DNA of 28,349 nt, taken from NCBI RefSeq assembly GCF_000281045.1, contig NW_008246093.1, positions 184,355 to 212,703 on the forward strand, read 5' to 3'. A program made the position numbers and the translations under genes. This stretch comes from Saprolegnia diclina VS20. Taxonomy: Eukaryota; Oomycota; Saprolegniomycetes; Saprolegniales; Saprolegniaceae. Under the pieces are notes generated by a model. The model did no database searches and was not told the origin of the DNA. It saw only the letters and a program-made list of their open reading frames with translations. This document shows, piece after piece, positions 1,727 to 27,578 of the stretch (the first letter of the stretch is position 1; each line of letters begins with the position of its first letter).

Positions 1727-3247
1727 TTAGCACGCCAGCGGCCGTGCATCGTCGTGCTTGGCGAACGACGAGAGTGCCATCGTGAGCGTCTCGTGCACAT
1801 ACTGGTGGCGCTCGAGTGCCATGAGCCGCTGGCGGTCGTCCGGCGACGTCGTCTTGACCGACGGCAAGACGTTGAGCTCAAACTCGAGTAGATTCTGGTC
1901 GTCGTCGTCGTCGTCGTCGTCGTCGCACCAGCACCCGCCTTCTTCGTCCGTCATGTACGATGTGTCGCACGAGTGCATGCTCGTGTCGGGCCGGGCGAGC
2001 GATATCGGTCGCAAGTCGTAGTGGACTTCATGGTACTTGTCGCTGCTCTCGATCATTTGGTTGGACGCGACCACGAGCGTCGTGCACAGCGCCGTTGACG
2101 CCGCCGGCTGGTACTTGATCTTGGCCGGCGACGTGTGGTGCTTGCTGTTGTCGTCCAGGAGCGCCCAGTCGTCGTCGTCGTCATCGATCGTATGAAACTC
2201 GCCCGATTTGAGCATCGGGCGCTTGCCCTTCCGGGACGTGGTCGCGTCCGGCTCGGCGCACTCGAAGCACATGCGCTGCGGCTCGCGCATGCGGCCCTTG
2301 ATGCGAATGCCCTGCGTGCACTTCCAGCAAAACACTTCGCCACACGCGCAGCAGTTGGCCTTCCACCGCAACGGGCTAAACTTGCGCGTGCAGAGCTGGC
2401 AGTGCTTGCGGTCGCTCAACGGCACGAGCGGCACAAGCAGCGACGACCGCGCTTTGATCGAAGGCGCTTCGTTGATCCACTGGCTGAGCTTGATGAGGCT
2501 CGACGCGCGGTGCTTCATGATGGTCTTGTAGATCCACGCCGGCGCAACGCCCTTGAAATCGAGCTCGACGCGGCCGTGCACTTCGAGCCGGCCCGGCGTG
2601 TCGGTCTCGAGGAAGAGATAGCCCGAGTTGTACAGCGAGCCGCGAATGAGCTTGAGGCTCGGCTTGAGCTCCGGGCACGTCGGCAGCCGAATCGAGTGCT
2701 GGGAGACGGCCCACGCGCGGCGCCCGGACGCAAGCGCCCACTGGCGCTGGACCTCGAGGACGCAAAAGTCGCGGTTGTTGAGCGGCGTCGGGCACTCGGC
2801 GACGAACCAGCGCACGACCGCATGCATGCCGGGCTCCTTGGTCGTCGGCGACACGATGCGGTGGAGGATCGCCATGTCCACGAGATCGCTCGTGTAGTGC
2901 TCGAGCGACGCCTGCATTTGATCGTCGGTGAGGTTGGCCATCGCGTCCTGCACCTGGTCAATCGTCGCGGCCATCGACGTGACAAAGCGGTGCGGGCGGA
3001 CGCGCGGCTCGTTCGGGAGCGCCGGACCCTGAAAGATCTGGACGCCATGGTGGTCGCCGCGGAAGCTCCAGCCGGGCTCTTGCATCGGATGCGTCCCGTA
3101 CGTTGACGAGAGAAACGTGTTGAAGGTGCGGTGCGAGAGGTCGTTGAGGTAGCTCAGCTCGGCCTGCGAGAGCGACGGCGCCTCGACAAAGCCCGGCGGG
3201 AGCTCGTCCAAGAGGCCGCTTGTCGGCTTGCGACTGACGGGGGCCAT
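1727..3247 (-). CDS. START-like/FYVE zinc-finger protein, intronless
   Basis: Predicted 506-residue protein. Residues about 25-265 form a START-like lipid-binding region; this rests on similarity to the other three genes of this kind in the window. A FYVE-type double zinc finger follows, with cysteine pairs at about C283/C286, C299/C302, C307/C310 and C327/C330. The canonical R(R/K)HHCR phosphoinositide-binding motif is replaced by a stretch reading RWKANCCAC, so PI3P binding is uncertain. The C-terminal third is acidic and low in complexity, with runs of six and nine aspartates. The frame extends 22 codons further upstream, but I start at 3247 because an initiator-like TCATTATA lies at 3266-3259, inside that extension. 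Unlike its relatives at 5653, 24126 and 26004 it has no introns; the site where they all carry an intron (after the conserved L-E) is read straight through. Likely role: membrane or lipid recognition at endosomes, inferred from the family. Confidence 0.88.
   Translation of the reverse strand: MAPVSRKPTSGLLDELPPGFVEAPSLSQAELSYLNDLSHRTFNTFLSSTYGTHPMQEPGWSFRGDHHGVQIFQGPALPNEPRVRPHRFVTSMAATIDQVQDAMANLTDDQMQASLEHYTSDLVDMAILHRIVSPTTKEPGMHAVVRWFVAECPTPLNNRDFCVLEVQRQWALASGRRAWAVSQHSIRLPTCPELKPSLKLIRGSLYNSGYLFLETDTPGRLEVHGRVELDFKGVAPAWIYKTIMKHRASSLIKLSQWINEAPSIKARSSLLVPLVPLSDRKHCQLCTRKFSPLRWKANCCACGEVFCWKCTQGIRIKGRMREPQRMCFECAEPDATTSRKGKRPMLKSGEFHTIDDDDDDWALLDDNSKHHTSPAKIKYQPAASTALCTTLVVASNQMIESSDKYHEVHYDLRPISLARPDTSMHSCDTSYMTDEEGGCWCDDDDDDDDDQNLLEFELNVLPSVKTTSPDDRQRLMALERHQYVHETLTMALSSFAKHDDARPLAC
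1898..1925. repeat. GTC trinucleotide repeat coding for nine Asp
   Basis: Nine uninterrupted copies of GTC (GAC on the coding strand) encode an aspartate run in the tail of the minus-strand FYVE gene. Such a pure codon repeat is prone to slippage and may vary in length between strains. Confidence 0.9.
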
Positions 3248-3258
3248 CGTGCGATATC

Positions 3259-3266
3259 TATAATGA
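3259..3266 (-). promoter_or_regulatory. Initiator-like element of FYVE gene 1
   Basis: The minus strand reads TCATTATA 12 nt upstream of the chosen ATG. It resembles the oomycete initiator consensus (TCATTYY-type). A TTTATAA stretch lies about 25 nt further upstream. The downstream neighbour at 27578 has the similar TCATTATT before its ATG. Confidence 0.45.
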
Positions 3267-5652
3267 GAGACGATTTGTGGTGGCGCCAGCGTTATAAAGA
3301 CGCGATCGTTCAAGAATGCTATCTCCGCGTCCGATTACTGGCCTTTCCCAAGACACGCCCGAACCCAATCAAAACGCGCGCCATAGATACGCTCGCAAGG
3401 GCAAAATGGCAACCCACTTTAGGAGGGGAGACATGTCCGCACCAGAACGTTCTTGCCACGCCAAGCCGCGCGCTCTCCACCTGCGCAGTACCCAAACAGT
3501 ACCGGAAATATCGTGGCTCTCGACGCCTTGTACGGTATGGTGCACAGAGCGCACTGCGACACGACACGTGCTCGTGATACCGTCTCGCAAGCGCCTGCAG
3601 CTTTGTATGCACCGCGCATCGTCGCCTGTACCCATCGTAACCTTGCGGTTTACATGTATTTTGGATCGAAGCCGGTTGTTCTCCATTGGTTGTTCTCGAA
3701 ATCCCTATCGTTTATATGTTGCTGCCACCGAGGTTGAGCGGGCGACTCGTGTCGTTGGTTGGACGACCCAAATACGAAGCAACCCATGCGATGTCCCAGC
3801 ATACCTGGCGCAACTTCAACCAAGGACGTGCTGCACTAACGCTCGTCGTGCGCGCTCGCATTGGCTACAACACGTCATTTGCCCTTAGCCTAGATGTGTG
3901 TCTGGTATGGTGTATACAAACATCAAGTGTGGTCGAAAGCCAAAGGACCTCCAGGAGAGGCGGGGCGACGCGGCCGGTGGCGACACGGGAGACGCAAAGT
4001 CCGAGATGCTCGTTGCCCGTGGCAAAAAAGCGGCCGCCGCGTCTGATCGAGAGAAAGGTTACCGTCGTCGAGCGGTCGACGGCGTTGACAGGACACCACC
4101 CGAATCGAGGTACCTGGAATGGAGCAAGCTGCCTATCCTTGGTCAAAAATCCTTCCACTTGGTGGGCGGGCGCTGGCGATATGCTGGCGTATGCACCGCC
4201 TACCAGAGAGGGATCGGCGGTATCGCTCTTGTGTCCTGCGTGCTGGGACAGCGAGGCAGCAGGTGCAGTGCGATTTTCTTTACCACGCGCGACAGGACCA
4301 CTCTGGGCATGGGCGCCCTGTTACGCCGAGGTATGGCACAATATGGATGCAAGAGGCCGGAACGTTGGGTTGCTTTTGCACGTATGGTTGCCGACGCGTG
4401 GAACCGACATGGCACCTGACGCCGTTGAGTGGCGCCACTCGTGCGACACGAAGAAGATAGTCCCAGAATCCCAACTGCATGCGTTGAACATACTCGTACA
4501 ACCCGGTTCTCGTGAGCATCCAACCCATTCGACGCATACAAAGACGCATAAAACGCGATTGGTCGTCGACTCGCAACGGTTTGTGCTCGTCGACTTCCTA
4601 CGGCTCCCAGGCAAGTTTGGACAGCACGATGTGGTGGTGATGATGCCCGCTTGCCCGTTGGCGTCATGCGGCTTTTCAATGAGTCTGTCTTGGGTGGTGA
4701 TGTTATGAGCGGCGTCGCACCGCCATGGCTTCCTCCGACAGCAAGCGGCCGTTGCTATGCACCTGATCACCGCCGTCGCTATCGACCTACACTCGTCGTC
4801 GCATGAGGCTTTCCCATCTTCAGGTTTGGTGTGTTTTCGATTCAACGAGAGAATTTGGCGCCAACGAAACAACACTAAGTTTGGGTTTGAAAATTGAACT
4901 TAACGGCGACAAGCCGGTCAGAACGTCGAGGCGCACGACCCGACCAAGAGCGGATGTCCATCGAACGACGTACATGACATCGCCGTGTCGCCGAGTTGAT
5001 CGCACATCTTGGTCGCTACATGTCGTCAATTGTCCGATCTTCCGCGTCAAGTAGGTGCCGTTGGAGCGTCCCACGAGCCAGCACTTGCGGTATTACCTAT
5101 GCACCGCGAGCTGCCGACGCGCGTTGAGATATGTCGTCGTCGTCATCCACCACTGACAGCAGTTATCGTGCGTGGTGGGGTGCTCAGTGACGTAGCGCTC
5201 CCGTGCTGATAACCTCGTATCCTGGGTGGTCGTTGACGCTTGGACAATACCTTAGTTTGATCTTGCAAGTTGGCACTGCCTTCTCACTCGACAGCTACTC
5301 GACAGGCATCGCAGAACTGAGCGAGTGACGGAGAGAACTTCAACTTGCTTTGCAAAACTTCAGAAAGGATGCCAGTGCTTTGCCTAGCGCACAGTGGGAT
5401 GCCCTTGGCACAGGGAGAAGCACGAAGACCGCCATCGCGCCACGGCGGCGCGGGTCGTCTCGCTCATAGCGCTCAAGGTATCGGAAGGAAGAACTCCTCA
5501 GACGAGATAACCGTGACGACCGACGCACCGATACGAAGAGATCCAGCTATCGAACGTATCATGCAATATGCGTTTGCAGAGGTTTTGGGAAATCATGCAA
5601 TATGTGTTTGCAGAGGGTTTTGGACAATGGCGAGAAAGGGCAACTTGCCAAC
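3267..5652. other. 2.4 kb region without a confident gene
   Basis: It contains a 340-codon open frame on the plus strand (3686-4708) with overlapping open frames on both strands (for example 3898-4419 plus and 4321-4875 minus). The predicted peptide is rich in Trp, Cys and His, has no recognisable domain and lacks the codon bias of the neighbours, so I do not call it a gene. A 34-bp tandem duplication sits at the right end (listed separately). Confidence 0.5.
5558..5625. repeat. Tandem duplication, two 34-bp units
   Basis: Two adjacent near-identical copies (5558-5591 and 5592-5625) beginning ATCATGCAATATG and differing at a few bases. They lie just upstream of the ATG at 5653, in the likely promoter or 5' leader of the second FYVE gene. 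An in-frame ATG at 5602 falls inside the second copy. Confidence 0.85.
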
Positions 5653-6969
5653 ATGCGATCGAGTCGCAAGCTCGAGCGACCGGCGAGCTTCGCCGACGCC
5701 AAGCCGCTGCAAGAGTCGGAGCGGCTCTTCCTCGAGACGATCGCGGCCGACGCCTTTGAGCAGTTTCTCTCGTCAGCGATGGAGCGGTCGCCGGTCTGGT
5801 CGCTCCTCGGCGACTTCAACCACGTGACTGTCTACGAAGGCCCGGCGCTGCCGTCCGAAGACCGCATTGTGCCGTACCGTGGGTCGCTCTCGCTCAACGG
5901 ATCGCTCGACGAAGTCCGCGCGATGCTGAGCAACCTCACGGCCGATCAAATGGCGTTCACGCAAGAGCACCACAATGACGGCATGCTCGACATGGCGATC
6001 CTCCACCACGTTCTCGAGCCGTCGCTCCGCGACCCGTTCCGGCACGTCGTCGTGCGCTGGTTCGTCCTCGAGTGCCCCAAGCCGCTCTACCACCGCGACT
6101 TTTGCGTGCTCGAGGTACCTATCTTGGTCGCTGCTAGTCTGCATGCTTGCTCATAGACGCAAAAAGAATGGCTCTTGCCCGGTGGGCGGCGGGCGTGGGC
6201 CATTGCACAGCACTCGGTGACGCTACCGACATGTCCAGACCTGAAATCCAACCTCATGGTGGTCCGCGGCTCCATGTACAACAGCGGGTCCGCTCCTCGT
6301 GCGTCGCTCCACCTTGTCATCGTTCGAGTGTCTAGGCTTGTCTTTCTCGAGAGCGATGTACCCGGCGTCCTGAACGTACACTCGCACATGGAGGTCAACC
6401 TCAAGGGCGCGATGCCCTCGTGGCTCTACAAGAGCATTCTCAAGCGGCACGTGGCCCGCATCGGCTACATAGCGTCGACGATCCACGAGTTTCGCTTGGC
6501 CGAGTGCGTCCAGAGCTACTTCGTGGTGATGGTGCCGCTCCGCGAGCGGACGCACTGTACGCAGTGCCTCAAGCGCTTCCACACGCTGCGGCGCAAGTGG
6601 AACTGCCGGACGTGCGGCGAAGTGTTTTGCTACAAATGCACGAGCAGCTTTGAGCCCAAGGGCCACAAGACCAAGCGCGACCAGCGCGTCTGCTCGTTCT
6701 GCGCCAAGTTTATTCGAGAGCAGAGCACGAGTTCGATCCGGAAGAACGTGTTTAGCGACCTCTGCCTGCACATGTCCCCCGGTACGACCATGATCGGTTT
6801 CTGCAGTTGAGGATGATGCTGATGCTCGGTAGGTTACCAAGGCTTGTCGCCAACGTACGATGATGAATCTTCCATGCCACACCGGCAGCGCAAATTGCGC
6901 CTCTCGCAAGACGACATGCGCCGACTCATGAAGGCCACCGACTCGGACCCGTGCATGCGCAGCTACTAG
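5653..6969 (+). CDS. START-like/FYVE zinc-finger protein, four exons
   Basis: Exons 5653-6114, 6157-6287, 6336-6781 and 6833-6969 join into 391 residues. Residues about 20-265 are START-like and align with the gene at 1727-3247 (shared blocks such as LDMAILH, VVRWFV.ECP.PL, GRRAWA, RGS.YNSG). The FYVE-type finger has C272/C275, C288/C291, C296/C299 and C317/C320; the usual RHHCR motif is replaced by RRKWNCRTC. The middle intron (48 bp) is divisible by three and stop-free, so an unspliced transcript would add 16 residues inside the START-like region. The last intron is needed because the unspliced frame stops at 6810, while the 3' exon continues as a polar, basic tail. The ATG at 5653 was preferred to an in-frame ATG at 5602 because it matches the start region of the paralogue. 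An alternative last splice (6951-7037) would end the gene at 7116. Confidence 0.85.
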
Positions 6970-11553: not shown

Positions 11554-12015
11554 CAGTGTATGACAACGCACCACAAACACTGGAGTGCCGCGCCGCCGTC
11601 GCCGACGAAGCGGCCGTCGCCGACAAATGTGCTCGCCATCCCGCCGTTCCAGCCCTGATGCCGGGAGCTGATTGGCTGTTCATTTTACACCGACCACGTG
11701 CTAAATTCGATCGAAGTGTTTTCCACACACTAAATACACGCCAGTATTGGACCAAACCTTGCTCCAGCTGACTTCACGCTGAATCAGAGGATGCTCTCTT
11801 GGCATCACTATCTAGTCTATTCGTACTAGTCCGAGAAATGATTCAATGGGTGTCTTCTCGCAAGCTGCATATGCAGGCATGATATGCAGGTATCTCCTTG
11901 CCTACTCGCAAGGCGGCGTGCGATTACACGGGAACGAGGATGCGATCCGTACTTATCCGGACACCAAATTGACGCTGAAGATGCAAAGAAAGACCATTTC
12001 GCCACGAGCAAGAGC
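11554..12015. other. Divergent intergenic region
   Basis: Separates the unknown minus-strand gene from the plus-strand methyltransferase and should contain both promoters. No coding signal was seen. A CCATTTCGCCA initiator-like word lies about 15-25 nt before the methyltransferase ATG at 12016. Confidence 0.45.
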
Positions 12016-12566
12016 ATGGCGACCCTCGCGCCGTTCAACCCGACGGGCGCCGGTGCCATCGACGTCGCCTTGCGCCTCCTTGCGCCAACGAAGGACGACG
12101 TCGTCTACGACATTGGCTGCGGCGACGGGCGGCTCCTCGTGGCCATTGCCTCGCAGTGCGGCAGCCGCTGCATCGGCATCGAATGCGACGCCAGCCTCGT
12201 CCAGCGCGCGCACGCCTTGATCCACGCGCATGGCGTGAGCGACCGCGTCACGATCCGCCAAGAAGACGCGACGACGTCCGACTTTTCCGACGCGACGCTC
12301 CTCTTTCTCTACCTCGTGCCCAAGGGCATCCAGGCCATGCTGCCCATGTACGCGCGCTCCTTCTTCGCATACTAGTATGTACTAGCGACCAAGGAATAGG
12401 CTCGAGGCCGCCAAGGCGAGTGGCGTCCGCATTTGCACCAACATCTTTTCGATACCGTCGTGGCAGCCGACGGCCACAGGCGACTACAAGGGCACCAAGG
12501 TATTTGTACTTGTTTCCTCCTCTTCTGACGCGACAACCGCACGTATAGATCTACTTGTATGCGTAG
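12016..12566 (+). CDS. Class I SAM-dependent methyltransferase, small
   Basis: Exons 12016-12347, 12400-12499 and 12549-12566 encode 149 residues. Motif I is VYDIGCGDGRLLV (glycine loop at 33-38), the acidic end of strand beta-2 is in GIECD (56-58), an acidic D85 follows in QEDAT, and the strand beta-4 region reads TLLFLYLVPKG. The end carries TNIFSIPSWQP and G-T-K-I-Y-L-Y-A. This layout and size resemble FAM173/ATPSCKMT-type lysine methyltransferases, but without the membrane segment of those mitochondrial enzymes, so the substrate is open. The first intron (52 bp) joins M-L-P-M to L-E-A-A-K; unspliced, the frame would stop after R-S-F-F-A-Y. The ATG at 12016 starts directly before the conserved domain; the frame is open further upstream without conserved-looking sequence. 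Confidence 0.88.
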
Positions 12567-13141: not shown

Positions 13142-13639
13142 TTAAGGCGCGACGCCGTGGCACTTTTTCATATGGCGGGCAAAGTTGGAGCGCTGCGTGA
13201 AGGTCCGGTGGCAGTCAGCAACATGACAGGCGAAGGGCTTGACGCCATAGTGCTTCCACACGTGCTCCTTGAGCGACCCGCTGTGGGCGTACCGCTTGGT
13301 GCAGCCGTCGTGCGTGCACATGTACGGCTTGATGCCTTCGTGCGCCTTGTGGTGCGCGCCGAGGTTGGAGCTATGGGCAAAGCGCTTGCTGCAGCCGTCG
13401 TACTTGCAAGCGAACGGCTTGCTGCCCGTGTGCGTCCGCTCGTGCGTCACGAGCTCCGACTTGGCGCGGAACCGCTTCTTGCACACGTCGCACACATGCG
13501 GCTTGGGCACCGCCGGCGGGCGCAGGCCGAGGAGCGTCGCGAGGATGTGGGCGTCGGCGGGCCCAAAGGCCTCTTCCTTGGGCGCCCAGAGCCGCGTCGG
13601 CTCCATGTGATCGTCCATCGCGCGAAGCAAGAATGGCAT
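13142..13639 (-). CDS. C2H2 zinc-finger protein, four fingers
   Basis: 165 residues without introns. Four classical fingers fill residues 48-161: C50/C53/H66/H70, C78/C83/H96/H100, C108/C113/H126/H130 and C138/C143/H156/H161. Linkers are variants of TGEKP (TGSKP, EGIKP, YGVKP). Fingers 2-4 have the C-x4-C spacing seen in TFIIIA- and ZIC-like fingers. Helix positions read [25 protein letters not shown] and QRSNFARH. The 47-residue N-terminal part has no domain. It is probably a sequence-specific DNA- or RNA-binding regulator; the target is unknown. ATG 13639 is the first ATG in frame; ATG 13618 is an alternative. Confidence 0.9.
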
Positions 13640-14467
13640 GCTACAGCGGTTATGCCTCTTCACTTCATGGGAAGATCCACCGCGTCAATTTTATCCGGAC
13701 TTCTTCGCGTATCCGGACACGCCTCGCGAAGATCGTTTCGCTCGCTCACGCCAAGTCCTCAGATGTTTGTACGCGTACGACTACGACGAGTTTATACCTA
13801 AGCTAGTCGTTGGTGTATGCGTACGACTCCACGTCCATGTTGTTGTTGATGATGGAGCTGCGATGTCCCGTCGCGACCGGTCGCCTTGCCCTTGGGGATT
13901 GCACGGTTGGGCATCTCCGCCCGCCGACGTCGCTTCTTCCTCCCATCTCCACAAGCCGCCTAGCTGAAACGACTCGCTGAAACGGGTTGCAACCTTCTCG
14001 CCATGATTGTGGCATGCATCAACGCGTCGGACTGAGTCGGGCCGTGTTGGGTCTTGCACGAGTTCATAAATAGAAAAGTCTCTTAGACTACTATCGGTAG
14101 TCTGTGAAAATGAAAATATTGTCCACGCGCTTGCCGACTAGCCCGACATCAAACGATACAACATACTAGTACTACCGTATACTTGGGTGGAGCTCTAAAT
14201 TTTGATGAGCAAGGCGTGGTCAGCGACGCTTGCGCAACTGCCTTTTGTCGCACTCGCGGCTACCTTCTTTTCGGTTCCATCGTTCACTTGCCACTCACTT
14301 CGGATGTCGAGCATGATTGACCAAAACGAGAAATTTGCACTCTAAAACGAGAAATTTGCACTCTCAAACCAGAAAATTACACTCAGAAGAAACAACATGT
14401 CCGTTGGAATGAAATATATAGCATCATAAATGGTAGCTCGTATGCATGTAAATAATCCTCGTAGCGA
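13640..14467. other. Intergenic region with degraded-looking open frames
   Basis: Minus-strand open frames at 13781-14059 and 13803-14015 overlap each other and have no domain; one ends in an Asn-rich stretch. I do not call them. A three-copy repeat lies at 14323-14386, just downstream of the flippase stop. Confidence 0.45.
14323..14386. repeat. Three-copy repeat of about 21 bp
   Basis: Two identical units (14323-14343 and 14344-14364, AAAACGAGAAATTTGCACTCT) and a third diverged unit (14365-14386), about 80-145 bp downstream of the flippase stop codon on the minus strand. Confidence 0.85.
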
Positions 14468-17400
14468 CTACGGCGTTGTCGTGTCGTCGTCCTGCATCGC
14501 CACTTGCACTTGATCGGTGGCCGCTGCCTCGGTGGCCGGCGTCGCGGGTGCCTTGATCCACCGGCGTCGACGCACGCAGCGCCCCATAATCTTGTTGATC
14601 CCGCGCTTGAGTTTGCCGGGGTGTTTGATGCGCAAATTCTCACGGTCGAGGTCCAATTTGCAAAAATCGGCAAATTTGGTCGCATATTCCCAGTGCCCGC
14701 CGTCGGCTTCGCACGCTTCTTCGATGCCAATACTCTTGTCAATGATCCAGTCGGCGTCCTGTGTCTTGGGGCGGTGGCTCGCGCCAAGCGCCATGTCGCG
14801 GTTGCAATACTGAAGCGGGTCCGCGAGCGTAAATGGCGCACTCCAGCCCAGAAACACTTGGTACCTACATCGAGTTGCATTCGTCGCTTGCTGGAAGGAG
14901 GACATGGGTGTACCGCTGGACTTGGTAGTAGTGCGGGACGTCCATGCTGTCGACGCCGCGCCAAAACTGGACTTCGGCGGCAAAGACGGCGCGGGGACTC
15001 AAGGCTCGGGCGAGAGCGTGCTCGACGTGGTGCAGAGTCCGCACGGGCGCCAAGATGAGGCTTCGCAACGCGCCGCCGTGTCGGTCTTCGAGCGACGCCT
15101 GTGAAAACGCAAAACCGCAATACGCCGGCCGCGCCGGCCCTGGGCCTCGAGGTGACTTCACAATATGAATCGCGAGGGTTGGATCTAAAGCAAACCGATG
15201 AGGGTTTATGAACAAAAGCGAATCACAGGACGACCTCGAAGCGGCTTGAGCTCGGACGTCAGGTAGCAGCGAAAGTCGACCTTGAACGGCTTGTAGTGCT
15301 TGGGAATGACCGGTCCAGTCCACGCAATCTTGTCGCCGAGGTCGAGCTTCTCGGCCTCTTGGAGGACGTGGTAGTACTCGGGTCGCCACTCGCGCTTGAA
15401 GCTTTTATAAATCAAGTCCCGGAGCAGCGCCATGACGACGCAGAGGAACACAATCATGTAGCTCTCGGGCAGCGTGCAAATGTAAGGGAAAATGTGGTCC
15501 GTGATCGCACTCGACATAAAGTTGGAGATGACGTAGCCCGAGACGACCCAGAACGGCAATGTGACCCACATGGCAAAGTGCATGCCTACCATTTTCTCAA
15601 CAACCCAAATCTCAATCTCAAAAACACGCTACCGAGGTTCCACGAGACCGTGTTGAGACCGAGCTTTGCCCACCCGACGGCAATGACGGCACAAAATGAG
15701 ACACCGCCGCAGTTGAGCAGCGAGAACGAGTTGCCTTGCGAGTCGACACTGCCGAGCAAATAGAGTGGCACGAGCGTGCACACAGCCTACATTGGAATTT
15801 AGCGCTCTTGCATCGCATGTGGCGCCTACCGCTTCGTACAGTCCTTCAAAGATCCAGGCCGTAAAGATGCGCAAGCTAAGCATCTCGCCGTGCGCTCCAA
15901 TGTGGTAGAGCCCCGGGTTGTGAAACGCCATGGACGCCGACGTCTCTTGCTCCATGACGGCGACAATCATGATCGGGAGGAACGTCCAAAAGATGTTGTA
16001 GCCGTTGAGCCAGTAGTTGTTGACGTACAGGGTGCCCGAGCCGCCCGCGTACACGGCAAAGACGTAGACGCTGAAGTAGCAAATGATGTTCTTGTAGACG
16101 ACGTAGAGCACGAGCTTGCACATGCGGTGGTAGTTCCAGTGGCCGTGGACGAGGAGGAGCCGGCGAAGGTACTCGAATTGCGCGATCGCAAAGTCGCTCG
16201 CGTTCACAGCCTGGAGCCCTTCGTGGCCCGAGATACCAATGCCAATGTGCGCTTCTTGGATCATGCTCACGTCGTTGGCGCCGTCGCCGATCGAGAGCGT
16301 CCGGCAGTCGGCAATGTTCTTCTTCACGAGCGCGACGACCTCGGCCTTTTGCTTGGGCGAGACGCGGCAGCAAATCACAGCCTTGCAACACTGCGCAATC
16401 TCGAGAAAGAGAAACTTGAGCTGCGGGTACATCAAGATAACCTTGAGCACTTGGCCGTCAATCACGATCGCTTGCGCCTGGACGTTCTGGAACGAATTCG
16501 AGGTGCCGCGCGCCGCTTCGTACGCCCGGACGACCTTGACGCGCTCTGTCAGCACCCGCTGGAGGTAACTCGCCATGTCCTCGTTTGGGCCGCACGCATC
16601 GCTGTTGAGGACCACACGGTCCATGTCGTCGGTCAAGAGCCGACACGCGTACGCAATGTTGATGGCCGTCTCTTCCTTGTCGCCGGTCAAAACCTAGTGC
16701 GCATAAGATCTTGTTGCAATACAATATCGAGACACGTACCCAGACTTTGATGCCAGCGCTCAAGAGACATGCAATGGTCTCGGGCACGCCGTTCTGGAGC
16801 CGGTCTTCGACGGCCGTCGCGCCAAGGAGCTCAAGGTCCGTCTCCATCGCCTCTTCGAGAGCTTCGATCCGCGCCAGGTCCTCCTGCAGGCAAAGTATTG
16901 GCATCCTTTTTGACTAGATATGTGTACCGTGTACGTCGGCGAGGTGTCATCGAGCGTCGTGAGCGCGTGCTTGTAGTCGGCCGCCCACGTCGTGTACCAG
17001 TCTTCGTCGAGCGTGCGCTGCGCAATCACGAGCGTGCGCAGTCCGTCGGCGGCGTACTGCTCCATGTGGGCCATCGTCTGGCGCTTGAGCGCTTCTGGCA
17101 CGTCGCTTGCGAGCCGCGGGTAGATGATCTAAGGCAATAGCCAGTCGGTTCATGATCGTTAGCGCAAAACAATACCATGTCGGCCCCCTTTGTCATGAGC
17201 AAGAGGCGGTTGCTGGGCGTGCGGCAGATGACCGACATGCGCTTCCGCGTCGACGTAAACTCGATGAGCTCGAGGATTTGGAATTCCTCGTCGCACGCGG
17301 CGCCTTGCACGAGTCGGCGCATCTACACAGCGTAAAACTCTGCGTGAAGCGGCGAGAGATCAATGATTGTACGGTGCATTTGCCAGTCGACCGACCCACA

Positions 17401-19286
17401 AACGTGAACCCAAGGAAGGCGGCCCCCGCCACAAGCGCAAGCTCATCGGGCGACGACGCGGAGAAGCTCGATGCGCCTGTCGCATCGTCCGTCTCGACAA
17501 CGACCGAGTGGCACACCGCGAGGTGCGTCAGGAACTTCGCCAAATTCGCTGCTTGGTGCGGAATGAGCCAGTCTTTTGCGAGCTCGTTCTTTGGGTCGAG
17601 AAACTGCACGTTGGGGATCGTGCGTCCATGCAGCGGCTCGGCTTCGAGGTCCGTGACAGACGCGACGCGCCCCGCGCGTGTCTGGGCGGCGCGGCCAATG
17701 TCGGTCGAGCCGCGGCCGTACGACCGCCCGGCGACCGAGAGCTTGCGAAAATTCATTTCATTGGCGGTGAGCGTGCCCGTCTTGTCGCTGAAGATGTGCG
17801 TCACTTGCCCAAGCTCGTCGTTGAGGTCGGCGTTGCGGACCATCGCTGGCGTGTCGGACGGGGCATGGTACATGCCTAGTTCATTTTGGTATCAGTGTCC
17901 AACTCTCCAATTCTCAAACATCTCGACACTCTCCAAACTCAAATTTGCCAAATTTGCCAAATTGGCAAACTTTGCAACAAAAAATATGAAAATCGACGTA
18001 CCGAGGTCGCGGTTCATAAAGATGGTTTGGTAGCTCTTGACGATCGCGATCGACACGTAGAGCGTGATGGGGACGAACGACGCAATGAGGATCCAGTAGT
18101 AGCCAAACATGACGACGCCGCCCGAAAATGAAATCGTATACGCGTTGAGCGAGTCGCCGACGCCAAAGTAGAGGTACCATGGCGCATTTGCATGCATCCA
18201 CGTCAGATCCAAGATCGTGCCGACGAAGCAGAGCGCAATGAGAATCGCCATCAGGATGAAGATGCCACGGTTGATGATCTCGAGCGCTTTGCTCGTCTTG
18301 GTCGGCGTCTTGTTGGACGACTGCATGACCTTGGTGTCGGTCCCGGTGTTGAGGACGAGGCCATACACAAACGGCGTGTTGCGAATGACGCAGCCGCGCA
18401 GCGCGACGTTCTTGAGGTCGAGCGGGAAGAGCGTGTCGCTGCCTTCGTCCGGCTCGTACCGTCCATTGAAGCTGTTGATGTCGTGGTTGGGCAGCTCGCT
18501 AAAGACGCGACCGGGCAGACGACCGAGCGCGCTTGGGTCCGAGAGCTGCGCGTACGTGCACGCAAGCGCTTGGCGGATCTTGAGGTTCGTCTCGCCGTCG
18601 AGCGACTTGGTCTCGACAAAGCACATGCCAATGGGCGACGACGGGTTGGCCTCGTGCACCTAGGATGGTATAAGACAAGGGTGGTGCGCGCAGGCGTACG
18701 GCAAGGAGGAGGACGTCGGCGGGCACGGCCTCGTACTTTTTGATTTGAAGAATGTCGCCGACCGCTACGTCCTTCCACGCCCGCTGCACGAACGGGTCGG
18801 ACGCGTTGGCACTGGCTCGGTCGTACACGAGCGTCGTCCGCGCGTTCATGACGGCGTCGGCGCGGTGGCGCGCGACGTCTTCGAGGCCTGTGAACACGCC
18901 ATCGACAAAGAGCACGATCGAGAGCACCATCCTGCGCATGCACTTAGCACCGAGAGATGGGATGTCACGGTGTACCATTGGTAGGGCAACCCGAGCGTCG
19001 ACGAGATCGAGGGCAGGAGCTGGCCGACGCCAACGAGAAGAAAGTAAAAGTTGGCCACCTGCGCGAGAATGAGCGAGACGCCATGCGGTCATGTGCGTAC
19101 CCGCGTGAAGCGCTCGTAGAGGAAGACGGGCACGAAGCTATAGAACGTGTACTTGCTCGTCGCGACCGCATTGTTCGGGAAGCCCGCGTTGGCCGACGGG
19201 TTGTTGAGGTGGACGATGCGCCAGTGCGTCGGGTCGAGCACGGACGCCGACGGCGTCGGCGCGACCGGTGCCTGCTCCGTCGTCAT
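14468..19286 (-). CDS. P4-type ATPase (phospholipid flippase) with C-terminal DysF-like region
   Basis: Thirteen exons in transcription order: 19286-19101, 19058-18976, 18931-18700, 18659-18002, 17875-17373, 17322-17176, 17128-16928, 16883-16740, 16693-15830, 15786-15633, 15585-15235, 15184-14914, 14864-14468; 1396 residues. P4 hallmarks in order: RVANFYFLL after the first helix, DGET (188-191) in the actuator domain, PITLYVS in helix 4, DKTGTLT with phosphorylated Asp417, [24 protein letters not shown] (599-602), [12 protein letters not shown] and GDGAND (854-859), then about six C-terminal helices and a GFAFSQ tail motif. It should move phospholipids to the cytosolic leaflet, usually with a CDC50 partner. 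Unusually, the frame runs on through two phase-matched introns into a region with [20 protein letters not shown] and CVRRRRWIK, a pattern like dysferlin (DysF) domains. The fourth intron is 126 bp; the others are 40-50 bp. The core is certain; the last two exons are slightly less so. Confidence 0.93.
17876..18001 (-). repeat. Long repeat-bearing intron of the flippase
   Basis: At 126 bp this fourth intron is more than twice as long as any other I place. On the plus strand, 17941-17976 consists of four nine-base units (CAAATTTGC twice, then CAAATTGGC and AAACTTTGC) that also form short inverted repeats. Without splicing the frame continues through the repeats and then stops inside the intron. 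Confidence 0.8.
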
Positions 19287-24125: not shown

Positions 24126-25587
24126 TTAACGATTATGCACGCGCAGTGTGATCATGGGGTCCACGAGGCCATCCATGTCGTACAGGAACGACGCGTCGGT
24201 GCTGTAGTCGACGTCTTCGGAATAGTTGCGCGGACGCAGCATGGACGGCCGCACCGGCAAATCCAAGCTGCTCTTGCGCGGTGGCTTCGGTCGCCGCGGT
24301 GCCGACTCGTACACTTGCAGATACGCCATGTCGACGCCGCCGCTGCCAGTAACCGGTGGCGGCTCGGTCGACCACGCATCGTTCTCACCGTCGAGCGAGT
24401 TGTCCGACATGCTCTCCGTGTCGCGCAGCCCGGGCATCGATGCGGGCGGCAGCGACGAGCGCACGGTCTTGGAGCAGACGTGACACACGCGCATGGGCGC
24501 GCTCGCGTCGGTTGGCATGGTCCACTTGCGGCTGCAGCTACTACATACCACCTACTGACGAGTCATACGAGAACGCAAAACTCGCGTGAGCTACCTTGCC
24601 GCAGGGCTGGCACGTCTTTGGACGGCGAAACCGGAATGAACTGCTGCAAAGCATGCAGTGCTTGGGCCGTGTCGTGACCGGCAACGACGTCATCGACAAG
24701 GACTCGAGCAGGACCGTGTGGCGGAGGCGCTGCTGGTGCACGTAGTCGTCGACCATGGTGATCTTGCGCGCCCGCCGACGCACAGCCAAATGCATGGCGA
24801 AGTGGGGAATGGAACCCTTGAAGTCGGACGCAATGTGGTAGACAACGTCGAGGACGCCGGGCGTCGCAGTCTCCAGGAAAACGCAGCCGGTGTGCTCGAG
24901 GGACCCGCGGACGAGGTCGAACTGCCTGAGTGGCGCGCAACACGCCGGTAGCTCAATCGACGACTGGCAGTACGCCCAGCCCCGCCGCCCAGATGCCATG
25001 GTAAACGTGTTTTGGCCCTACTTTCTTGTAGGAAAAAAGAGGAAATTGCACGGGAGTATACCTCAAGGTAGAGGTAGTCGCGGTTGCTGATGACCGAGAG
25101 CGGCGACTGCACGGCCGCCCACTTGACGTAGGTTTGGCGGTGCGGCGCGTCTGGTGACCGATCGCGGAGCGAGTAGAGAGGAATGATGTCGAGAATGTCG
25201 CTTGCGTAGCAGCGCATGTACTCGAAGCACTTGGCGCGCGTCTCAAAGGCGTGCAGCGCAGCGACTTCGTCGATGGTGGCCGAGATGCGCGCCACCGCTC
25301 GGTACGGGACGTAGCCTACACGATCGTCGTATCCTATAATACGACTAGGATTCGGATCTCGTACTGGCATTGGCTGGCAAGGCGGACGAGTGCATCTGGA
25401 AGAGGTTGACGCCACTGGTCCGGCCGATGGGCGTCCATGTCTGCAGCTTCATCGGCGAGGTCGCCGACGCAATGAGGTTGGTCAAGTTGACGTCGGCTCT
25501 CGCGCGGTACGCGTCGGCGTCGGCTTCCGAGAGCGGCGGCGCATGAAAGAAGTCGTCCGGCAGCGGGAACCGCTTCTTGGTCGGCAT
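24126..25587 (-). CDS. START-like/FYVE zinc-finger protein, four exons
   Basis: Exons 25587-25365, 25315-25062, 25017-24595 and 24551-24126 give 441 residues. Residues about 10-270 form the START-like region (ISATIDEVAALH, VKWA.VQSPL, RRGWAYCQSS, FLETATPGVLDVVYHI). The FYVE-type finger has C280/C283, C295/C298, C303/C306 and C323/C326 and again lacks RHHCR (RRPKTCQPC instead). The third intron falls inside the zinc finger, between C298 and C303. The tail is polar, with a DMAYLQVY motif and basic/proline-rich RRPKPPRKSS. It is most similar to the next gene (26004-27578): same exon number, the same intron phases and positions, and the same tail motif, which points to a tandem duplication. ATG 25587 starts just before the conserved part; the frame is open 25 codons further upstream. 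Confidence 0.87.
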
Positions 25588-26003: not shown

Positions 26004-27578
26004 CTATGAATGGCGCAGTGGTGTGATCACAGCCGGGGCAATAATGTCAAAGTCCCCGCTCAAGTCGGGCGTCGTTGGGTCATTGAAAATGATGTGCTTG
26101 GTCGGTGCACTCGTCGGTGCCGCGCGCATCGCGACGGACGATCGCCGGCGCTGGCTTCGGGCAATGGACGACCGGCGGCTTGGCGACATGGGTGGCCCGT
26201 ACATTTCCACATACGAGAGGTCGCAGCTTTGGCTCAGCGTCGAGACGCGGCTGCTGTCGCTGATCTGGCTGGACGACGACGGGCGGCGAAGGATATCGGA
26301 CGGGCGGCGCATCGACGGGCGCGGCATCGATGCGGTCAGATTGTCGTCGTCGTAGCGCGTTGACGGGCGGTACACGTCGGGCATCGATGCGCTCTCGACG
26401 CCGCGGAGTCGTGGCGCGCCGCCGTCCGACTTTTCCCACATTGAACCGTCGCGCACCGCAAGCGAGCACACGTGGCAGATGCGCACGTCGACTTTTGAAT
26501 GTTGTAGCACATGCAGCGACCACTTGCGACTGCACTTTGCGCACACAACCTGTCCAACCTCGATGATCTCATTTTGAAAAAGACAAGTTGTGTACCTGGC
26601 CGCAGCTCTGGCAAATTTTGGACGCGCGGAAGCGGAACGACACAAAACACGTGGCGCAGCTCTTCGGGGGTGGACCGTGGTGCATGGCGCTCTTGGCGTG
26701 GATCGGCAGCTGGCCGAGACGCATCTCGTGGATGTACTTGTCGAGGCGCGCAATGGACTTGCCGCGGCGCTTGATGGCCATTTGCCGCACGAAATGCGGC
26801 ACGTTGCCGTGGACGTCGGTGCCGAGGTGGTAAATGACGTCGAGGGTCCCCGGTCTTTCCGTTTCCAAAAACACACAACCCGAGTTGGCGAGGTGGCCAC
26901 GGACCACGTCGTACTGCGGCAGCGCGGGGCACCCGGGCAGCGAGATCGACGACTGGCAGTACGCCCAGCCGCGCCGGCCAGACTCGAGCACAAACGCGTC
27001 TTGTGTCTACAAGATATGACGTTGTTGTACATTTTCTGGAGTAGTGGGCGGGTAGTACCTCGAGGTAGGTAAAGTCGCGGTCCTTGATGAGCGCGACTGG
27101 GCTCTGGATGACCGACCATTTGATGTACATGCGAGACGTTGTCGCGTCCGAGCTCGTGGGCTCGCTGAGGACGTAGAGCGGGAGCAGACCGAGAACGTCG
27201 TGGGCGAGGTGCCGTCGGTACTGGTCGCACTGCGCCTTGGTGTCAAAGCAGTGCAGTCGCGCAACTTCATCCAGCGTCGCGTTGATTTTGGCCAGCGCGC
27301 GGTACTGCATCACATCTAAAGCAGCTCTCATATCATATTGGTCCAATTTTTTCAACGGACGTACTCTTGTCGGACGTGCTCGGGTCCGTGGCCTGGAAGA
27401 GGCTCACGCCATGCGCGTCGCCGACCGGGTCCCACACGAGCGCGTTGTGCTGCTTCTTGGTGACACTGGCGACGAAAGTGCGAAGGAGGTCGTGGCCGCG
27501 CTCTCTCAGCGTTGCTTTTGTCTCGGGCGACAGCTCGGGAGTCTGGAAGACGCCGCGGGGCAGTGTGAAGGACGACAT
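26004..27578 (-). CDS. START-like/FYVE zinc-finger protein, four exons, Ser-rich tail
   Basis: Exons 27578-27365, 27315-27059, 27006-26596 and 26549-26004 give 475 residues. The START-like region covers about 10-265 (INATLDEVARLH, IKWSVIQSPV, RRGWAYCQSS, FLETERPGTLDVIYHL). The FYVE-type finger has C274/C277, C289/C292, C297/C300 and C319/C322, with an intron between C292 and C297 exactly as in the adjacent paralogue; RHHCR is absent. The tail (325-475) is Ser/Arg-rich with several R-R-x-S sites (RRPSD, RRPSS, RRSSI, RRSSV) that look like targets of basophilic kinases, and it shares a D-x-x-Y-x-x-x-Y motif (DLSYVEMY) with the neighbour. An initiator-like TCATTATT lies 28-35 nt upstream of the ATG. 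Confidence 0.87.

What the first reader, a model, noticed from the sequence alone, without database searches (positions are those of the whole stretch)
14468..15235. Predicted fusion of a P4 flippase to a dysferlin-like domain
Seen: after the last flippase helices the frame crosses a 50-bp and a 49-bp intron, both phase-compatible, and continues for 223 residues. The GFAFSQ motif right after the first of them is a normal P4 tail element, so that junction is sound. The end carries [12 protein letters not shown] (about 1260-1271), HWEYATKF (1322-1329) and CVRRRRWIK (1361-1369), in the order seen in DysF domains (an N-terminal GWS-like block, a W-E-Y-A block, and a final R-R-R-R-W-I/V). Known: DysF occurs in dysferlins, peroxins and TECPR1, proteins tied to membrane repair, peroxisomes and autophagy. 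Inference: one polypeptide may couple lipid flipping to a membrane-damage or membrane-contact module. I do not know this fusion as described.
Basis: partly seen in the sequence, partly recalled or inferred. Interest (0 to 1): 0.75.

Follow-up and report, generated by a model that had tools for sequence, protein, structure and literature searches.

The report
Oomycete lipid flippase with dysferlin-type tail
A water-mould gene encodes a lipid-flipping pump (P4-ATPase) whose cytosolic end carries a divergent dysferlin-type (DysF) domain, a module that senses membrane lipids in other proteins; the same tail was found on flippases of many oomycetes, so this could be a flippase with its own lipid sensor.

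Summary
The P4 GFAFS element and the first tail strand share one uninterrupted exon. The tail occurs in flippases of Saprolegnia, Achlya, Thraustotheca, Aphanomyces, Pythium, Globisporangium, Lagenidium, Phytophthora, Nothophytophthora and Albugo. Alone, the window tail matches no Pfam model (a real negative). As a profile, 22 such tails match DysF domains: 98.0% against a Pex24p-positive protein of the same genome and 96.3% against the TECPR1 DysF crystal-structure sequence, far above shuffles. A second flippase of this genome (contig C29) ends in a more canonical DysF whose only PDB hit is TECPR1 DysF (E 7e-6). Structure prediction supports this only weakly. I conclude that it is a real, old flippase-DysF fusion: a new architecture from known parts. 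Most likely, by inference, the DysF tip binds an anionic lipid (phosphatidic acid leads) and places or releases the neighbouring autoinhibitory tail. No report of the fusion turned up in the searches listed.

The parts
14468..19286 (-). P4-ATPase-DysF gene, 13 exons, 1396 aa (start ATG 19286, stop ending at 14468)
   Evidence: gene model by hand, 12 of 12 introns GT..AG, frame open; 96% identity over full length to Saprolegnia parasitica SPRG_13856 = P0001
15830..19286 (-). exons 1-9: N-terminal domain, A-domain LDGET (187-191), DKTGT phosphorylation site (D417), TGDKEET, GDGANDV and part of the membrane helices
   Evidence: Pfam PF16209, PF13246, PF00702 over cut-off; PF00122 and PF08282 below theirs; motifs invariant in A1
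15235..15786 (-). exons 10-11: last flippase helices (PhoLip_ATPase_C 881-1126 spans exons 9-11) and the start of the cytosolic tail
   Evidence: PF16212 E 1.1e-62; exon limits
15185..15234 (-). intron 11 (50 bp)
   Evidence: proteins P0001-P0005 continue across it
14914..15184 (-). exon 12: GFAFSQ autoinhibition-type element (residue 1198 on), linker, and first DysF strand YYQVQR, in one uninterrupted exon
14865..14913 (-). intron 12 (49 bp)
14468..14864 (-). exon 13: rest of the DysF-like domain (YQVFLGW ... DP ... WIID ... HWEYATKF ... basic segment ... CVRRRRWIK) and a short variable end

Best explanation
The gene encodes a Drs2/ATP8A-like phospholipid flippase whose cytosolic C-terminus holds, in order, the GFAFS element known to latch Drs2-type flippases shut, a linker, and a divergent DysF domain with a basic segment at its tip. 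Shown here: one reading frame, conserved across oomycetes, homologous to DysF domains. Inferred: the DysF tip docks onto an anionic lipid of the cytosolic leaflet (phosphatidic acid is the lead candidate). Because it is tied to the GFAFS latch, docking positions the tail at the membrane and favours release of autoinhibition, so the pump works where that lipid accumulates, much as PI4P frees Drs2.
For: One polypeptide: GFAFS and the first DysF strand lie in one exon; same order in a single 242-aa frame of the C29 paralogue; same architecture in proteins of ten named oomycete genera, with GFAFS ahead of the tail in 24 of 25 proteins (P0022 has SFAFS). DysF homology: hhalign of 22 tails (A3; the window tail itself not in it) vs the Pex24p-positive ORF of L001, 98.0%, E 1.4e-13; rerun 97.8%, score 83.1, against 300 shuffles with at most 3.7% and 22.3; still 96.0% with RRRRW masked. 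Vs TECPR1 DysF 96.3%, E 2e-9, score 54.8, best of 100 shuffles 19.5. The C29 tail hits only TECPR1 DysF in the PDB, E 7.2e-6. P0011 tail vs L001 DysF in a six-frame search, E 3.3e-5. Residues: Q75, R76, W138, Y140, R159-R161 and W163 of TECPR1 have identical counterparts in 24 of 24 tails, W122 in 22 of 24. Mechanism: the GYAFS tail ties the cytosolic domains and PI4P dislodges it in Drs2 (PMC11225554, passages); DysF domains of Pex30-family proteins and dysferlin bind phosphatidic acid (PMC12101078, passages); TECPR1 DysF binds sphingomyelin through its tip (PMC10476172, passages); the 16 residues before the last strand hold 4-8 K/R and 0-1 D/E in the 24 tails.
Against: The single window tail has no Pfam match at E 10; only 6 of 22 tails match Pex24p, best E 0.024 at 14.1 bits, cut-off 26.8. 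hmmsearch of the tail profile vs the PDB ranks TECPR1 last of 7 at E 4.6. A tail-profile search of the protein database (short proteins only) found no PF06398-annotated protein at E 10. AlphaFold models are weak (pLDDT 50.6 and 69.7) and Foldseek finds no DysF. Two stacking tryptophans (TECPR1 W116, W118) are lost in the window; of the sphingomyelin-site residues D143, K153 and W154 are not kept (R76 is, and K152 is K or R in 22 of 24). The C29 paralogue lacks the basic tip (2 K/R, 2 D/E of 16) and three of the four stack tryptophans. Pex30 DysF did not bind liposomes with PS or 5% PI4P. No lipid binding, activity or expression was measured here.
Confidence: 0.55

Rival explanations
1. The tail is a real DysF domain but acts as a location tag or contact-site tether: it holds the flippase at a membrane or contact site rich in a given lipid (as Pex30 DysF does) and does not gate the enzyme.
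For: Pex30 DysF is needed at several ER contact sites and for phosphatidic-acid homeostasis (PMC12101078, passages). A linker of about 57 residues separates GFAFS from the domain in the window. G[FYW]AF motifs occur at 5 further P4 loci of this genome without the DysF blocks, so the latch does not need DysF.
Against: The domain follows the GFAFS element in all tails seen complete, also in the C29 paralogue (P0022 has SFAFS), which would be a coincidence for a pure tether.
Confidence: 0.29
2. The tail is a protein-protein or oligomerisation module that kept the DysF fold but lost lipid binding.
For: Several tip residues that bind sphingomyelin in TECPR1 are not kept. The dysferlin structure paper suggests that extending the sheet with other DysF domains or proteins is a likely way to interact (PMC3898210, passages).
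Against: The tip holds a basic, conserved segment in 24 of 24 tails, which suits anionic membranes.
Confidence: 0.1
3. Fusion artefact: two neighbouring genes joined by wrong intron calls.
For: No transcript data were available here; the intron in front of exon 12 is a prediction.
Against: Exon 12 holds both the P4-type GFAFS element and the first DysF strand without a break; the C29 paralogue holds both in one frame; orthologues from ten named genera show the same order.
Confidence: 0.02
4. The tail is not DysF: the W/R-rich motifs converged.
For: Pfam negative, weak models and no Foldseek match.
Against: Order of the blocks agrees with TECPR1 and L001; profile scores are 2.8-3.9 times the best shuffle; a paralogue with the same neighbourhood is DysF by plain sequence search.
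Confidence: 0.04

Closest known systems
Drs2 / ATP8A / ATP8B1-type P4-ATPases with GYAFS C-tail
   Same: Whole pump core (best PDB match of the orthologue P0001 is DRS2, E 2.2e-214) and a GFAFS element in the C-tail like the GYAFS that locks these pumps
   Different: None of the passages read describes a folded domain behind the latch; here a DysF domain follows
DysF domain of TECPR1 (PDB 8P5P), dysferlin/myoferlin inner DysF, yeast Pex30 family
   Same: Order of the YExQR, W, W..D, W-x-Y and RRRxW blocks; profile match to TECPR1 96.3%
   Different: Two stack tryptophans lost in the window, part of the sphingomyelin site not kept, basic segment before the last strand; no C2 domain in the whole protein
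Apicomplexan P4-ATPase joined to a guanylate cyclase (ATPaseP-GC)
   Same: A protist P4-ATPase fused to another module (mentioned in PMC7949121, passages)
   Different: Partner is a cyclase, not a DysF domain
PcApt1 of Phytophthora capsici (PHYCA_120336)
   Same: An oomycete Drs2-like flippase; it takes part in phosphatidylserine transport, and its removal lowers virulence (PMC9127794, start of abstract and passages)
   Different: The passages name only the three P4 Pfam domains; whether it is the DysF-tailed orthologue was not tested

Membership tests
P4-ATPase (phospholipid flippase) | PhoLip_ATPase_N and PhoLip_ATPase_C domains | tested here: met
   PF16209 E 2.5e-20, PF16212 E 1.1e-62, both over cut-off
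P4-ATPase (phospholipid flippase) | catalytic motifs DGET, DKTGT, TGDKEET, GDGANDV | tested here: met
   present in the window protein and invariant in alignment A1
P4-ATPase (phospholipid flippase) | lipid transport with a CDC50 partner | not testable with these tools
   needs biochemistry
Drs2/ATP8A-type P4 with latch | G[FY]AFS element in the C-tail | tested here: met
   GFAFSQ at residue 1198; GFAFS invariant in 7 of 7 rows of A1
DysF domain | block order YxxQR..W, then W..D, W-x-Y, then RRRxW | tested here: met
   24 of 24 tails for the residues at TECPR1 Q75, R76, W138, Y140, R159-R161, W163. P0010 and P0025 of the 25 proteins, each lacking one end block in its model, were left out
DysF domain | significant match to a DysF reference | tested here: met
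   as a profile of 22 tails. The single window tail: none
DysF domain | Arg/Trp stack (in TECPR1: W116, W118, W122, W138; R159, R161, R165, R167) | tested here: inconclusive
   window keeps the W122, W138, R159 and R161 equivalents, has K for R165, and lacks W116 and W118; over 24 tails W116 is W in 7, W118 is F in 20, R165 is R in 18; R167 was not mapped
DysF domain | fold: two long antiparallel strands joined by a wrapping loop | tested here: inconclusive
Pex24p/Pex30 peroxin family (PF06398) | Pfam curated cut-off 26.8 bits | tested here: not met
   best tail 14.1 bits; I do not file the protein as a peroxin
Ferlin family (dysferlin, myoferlin) | multiple C2 domains and nested DysF | tested here: not met
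   no C2 domain in the whole-protein Pfam scan at E 10; one DysF copy seen

The most novel reading that the evidence does not exclude
Oomycetes carry a flippase with a built-in lipid sensor: phosphatidic acid (or another lipid that appears on the cytosolic leaflet on damage or at contact sites) binds the basic DysF tip, pulls the neighbouring GFAFS latch away and switches lipid flipping on locally. The arrangement predates the split of the main oomycete lineages, and a second, divergent flippase in this genome also ends in a DysF domain, so oomycetes would have tied DysF lipid sensing directly to membrane asymmetry.
Probability: 0.3. Interest if true: 0.75.

Novelty: new variant of a known kind. 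Interest (0 to 1): 0.6.

Why it matters
What switches Drs2-type flippases on beyond phosphoinositides, and what DysF domains do in most proteins, are both open questions. A protein in which the two are joined right behind the autoinhibitory element makes both testable in one construct. The tail is conserved across a lineage that includes major plant and fish pathogens, and within the reach of my searches it was seen there only, so it may be a lineage-specific feature of a basic membrane enzyme.

Tried and rejected
Single-sequence Pfam scan of the tail and phmmer vs the PDB (5 unrelated hits): nothing relevant. Profile hmmsearch vs the PDB: 7 hits, the first six unrelated, TECPR1 DysF seventh at E 4.6. 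Tail-profile search of the protein database for short relatives: 2 hits at E 10 of 3435 candidates, both oomycete pieces that begin before GFAFS and run into the tail (P0026, and P0027, which is partial; sequences). Two AlphaFold jobs: weak; Foldseek's tables hold no DysF (7 and 1 hits, all E above 4). L002, the second Pex24p locus, matches the tail profile only weakly (27.4%; 30.0%, score 29.9).

Tree of the PF16212 domain (23 rows: 12 of the 17 P4 loci of this genome, window gene included, and 11 of 25 proteins): the 12 tail-bearing orthologues form one group (100/100); the place of the C29 paralogue is unresolved (long branch). The label 'DysF tail' needs 2 changes on the tree, and one origin is not ruled out.

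Gene-artefact and convergence readings were considered and held unlikely (see rivals). Membrane-repair function was considered; nothing here tests it.

Literature: 'DysF' + 'P4-ATPase' (207 papers, 20 listed) is uninformative because words such as 'dysfunction' matched; 'DysF domain' + 'oomycete' 0 papers; 'DysF' + 'flippase' whole words 4 papers, listing seen, none on a fusion by title or abstract start; 'DysF domain' 59 papers, 40 listed; 'flippase' + 'oomycete' 51, 12 listed; 'dysferlin' + 'oomycete' 1; 'P4-ATPase' + 'Phytophthora' 10. Only that open-licence library was searched.

Full report
What is there. The window lies in an unnamed 54-Mb genome (contig C26); its flippase is 96% identical to Saprolegnia parasitica SPRG_13856 (P0001), so the organism is probably a Saprolegnia or a close relative. 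On the minus strand, 19286-14468, I modelled 13 exons, 12 of 12 introns GT..AG and 40-126 bp long, giving 1396 residues with one terminal stop. Pfam finds PhoLip_ATPase_N (E 2.5e-20), Cation_ATPase, Hydrolase and PhoLip_ATPase_C (E 1.1e-62) over their cut-offs; the best solved-structure match of P0001 is yeast DRS2. DGET, DKTGT, TGDKEET and GDGANDV are intact and invariant.

The junction. Exon 12 (15184-14914) carries, in one open frame, both the GFAFSQ element of the P4 C-tail and the first strand of the new domain (YYQVQR). So the P4-to-tail join does not rest on intron 12; only the join of exon 11 to exon 12 rests on intron 11, and proteins of Saprolegnia parasitica, Achlya, Thraustotheca and two Aphanomyces species continue across it.

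How widespread. A tail search with the window protein gave 6 proteins at E <= 0.001 of 1392 candidates. One of them (P0006), used in turn, gave 21 of 1081 candidates. No named hit was from outside the oomycetes, but the search needs shared five-letter words, so this does not show absence elsewhere. Both end blocks of the tail are present in 23 of the 25 and in the window; P0010 and P0025 lack one in their models. A tree of the PF16212 domain places the 12 tail-bearing orthologues tested in one group (100/100) with the six Saprolegniales rows as a supported sub-group (99/100) and the rest unresolved. That Saprolegniales split early from the other oomycetes is recalled; with it, the simplest reading is that the common ancestor of these lineages had the fusion.

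Evidence for. Own-genome locus L001 has an ORF that passes Pfam's Pex24p cut-off (42.3 bits) over its DysF part and also holds a VASt lipid-transfer domain. The profile of 22 tails (A3, which leaves out the window tail itself, P0010, P0025 and P0017, whose tail is the same as P0016's) matches it at 98.0%, E 1.4e-13, 99 columns. In a rerun it scores 83.1 (97.8%); 300 shuffles reach at most 3.7% and a score of 22.3; with RRRRW masked the match is still 96.0%. Against the TECPR1 DysF sequence of crystal structure 8P5P it is 96.3%, E 2e-9, score 54.8, best of 100 shuffles 19.5. A single tail (P0011) finds the L001 DysF in a six-frame search of the genome at E 3.3e-5, 42% identity. The second Pex24p locus, L002, matches weakly (27.4%).

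A second flippase with the domain. The same search gave a weak hit (E 0.0078) on contig C29, directly behind another P4-ATPase. There one 242-aa frame (L037:874-1602, minus) runs from the last flippase helix through GFAF to YENQRYQPFVGFGGHLLPSDRGHWSDRSG...CDEEGWVYATDF...VRRRAWV. Its only PDB match at E 10 is TECPR1 DysF, E 7.2e-6; it matches L001 DysF by BLASTP (1e-12 for the single comparison) and the window-type tail profile at 97.7%. By Pfam it too stays under the cut-off (14.9 bits). I group the 27 PF16212 matches into 17 loci. In a motif scan of the 3' flanks (21 of the 27 matches, chosen to cover the 3' end of each of the 17 loci, up to 1.5 kb, introns not removed) the DysF blocks occur together only at the window gene and C29; a G[FYW]AF motif occurs at 7 of 17.

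Residues. Mapping to TECPR1 numbering (stack and site residues as given in PMC10476172, passages): Q75, R76, W138, Y140, R159-R161 and W163 have identical residues in 24 of 24 tails (window plus 23 proteins); position 83 is W in 24 of 24 (F in TECPR1); W122 is W in 22 of 24. W116 is W in 7 of 24 and W118 is F in 20 of 24; both are lost in the window. Of the sphingomyelin site, R76 is kept and K152 is K or R in 22 of 24, but D143, K153 and W154 are not kept. The 16 residues before the last strand hold 4-8 K/R and at most one D/E in the 24 tails. The C29 paralogue differs: 2 K/R and 2 D/E there, and of the four stack tryptophans only W138.

How it probably works. Established by others: in Drs2 and ATP8B1 the GYAFS C-tail ties the cytosolic domains together, and PI4P frees Drs2 (PMC11225554, passages). 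DysF domains of Pex28-31 and the inner DysF of human dysferlin bind phosphatidic acid in vitro, those tested on liposomes not PS (PMC12101078, passages); TECPR1's first DysF binds sphingomyelin with its tip (PMC10476172, passages). Inferred: in the oomycete protein the DysF tip, with its basic segment, binds an anionic cytosolic-leaflet lipid and, being tied to the GFAFS latch, controls when or where the flippase runs. The rival that it merely places the protein cannot be excluded.

Novelty. In the searches listed under Tried and rejected I found no mention of a flippase with a DysF domain. The parts are known, the combination is a new architecture: a new variant of a known kind. A P4-ATPase joined to a guanylate cyclase in Toxoplasma shows that P4 fusions occur (PMC7949121, passages). 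An oomycete Drs2 homologue, PcApt1, has been deleted in Phytophthora capsici; it takes part in phosphatidylserine transport and is needed for full virulence (PMC9127794, start of abstract and passages). Whether it is this orthologue I did not test.

Noticed in passing
L037:874-1602 minus (G000:C29:538673-539401): A second P4-ATPase of the same genome ends in GFAF plus a more canonical DysF domain, in one frame; its only PDB hit is TECPR1 DysF.
   Followed up: yes
L001:1000-1842 plus (G000:C20): An ORF joining a VASt (StAR-like lipid transfer) domain to a DysF domain, both over the Pfam cut-offs.
   Followed up: partly
L040 and L041 (G000:C13:401975-402277 and 329288-329605): Two ORFs with a DysF-like end (WENERY...RRRxW) behind a stretch that looks like a C2 domain by eye; not scanned.
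   Followed up: no
window 1727-3334 (minus) and 6157-6810 (plus): START plus FYVE proteins; similar-looking ORFs around 24126-25448 and 26004-27403 (minus) gave no Pfam match at E 0.001 in the three pieces scanned.
   Followed up: partly
window 13142-13684 (minus): C2H2 zinc-finger ORF just downstream of the flippase gene.
   Followed up: no
window 11842-12375 (plus): Methyltransferase-domain ORF.
   Followed up: no
P0006-P0024 tails, segment before the last strand: A conserved basic segment (such as ERRRLKKKLNKLVGR) sits where TECPR1 has part of its sphingomyelin-binding tip; the Phytophthora-type tails add about 18-25 residues in front of it.
   Followed up: partly
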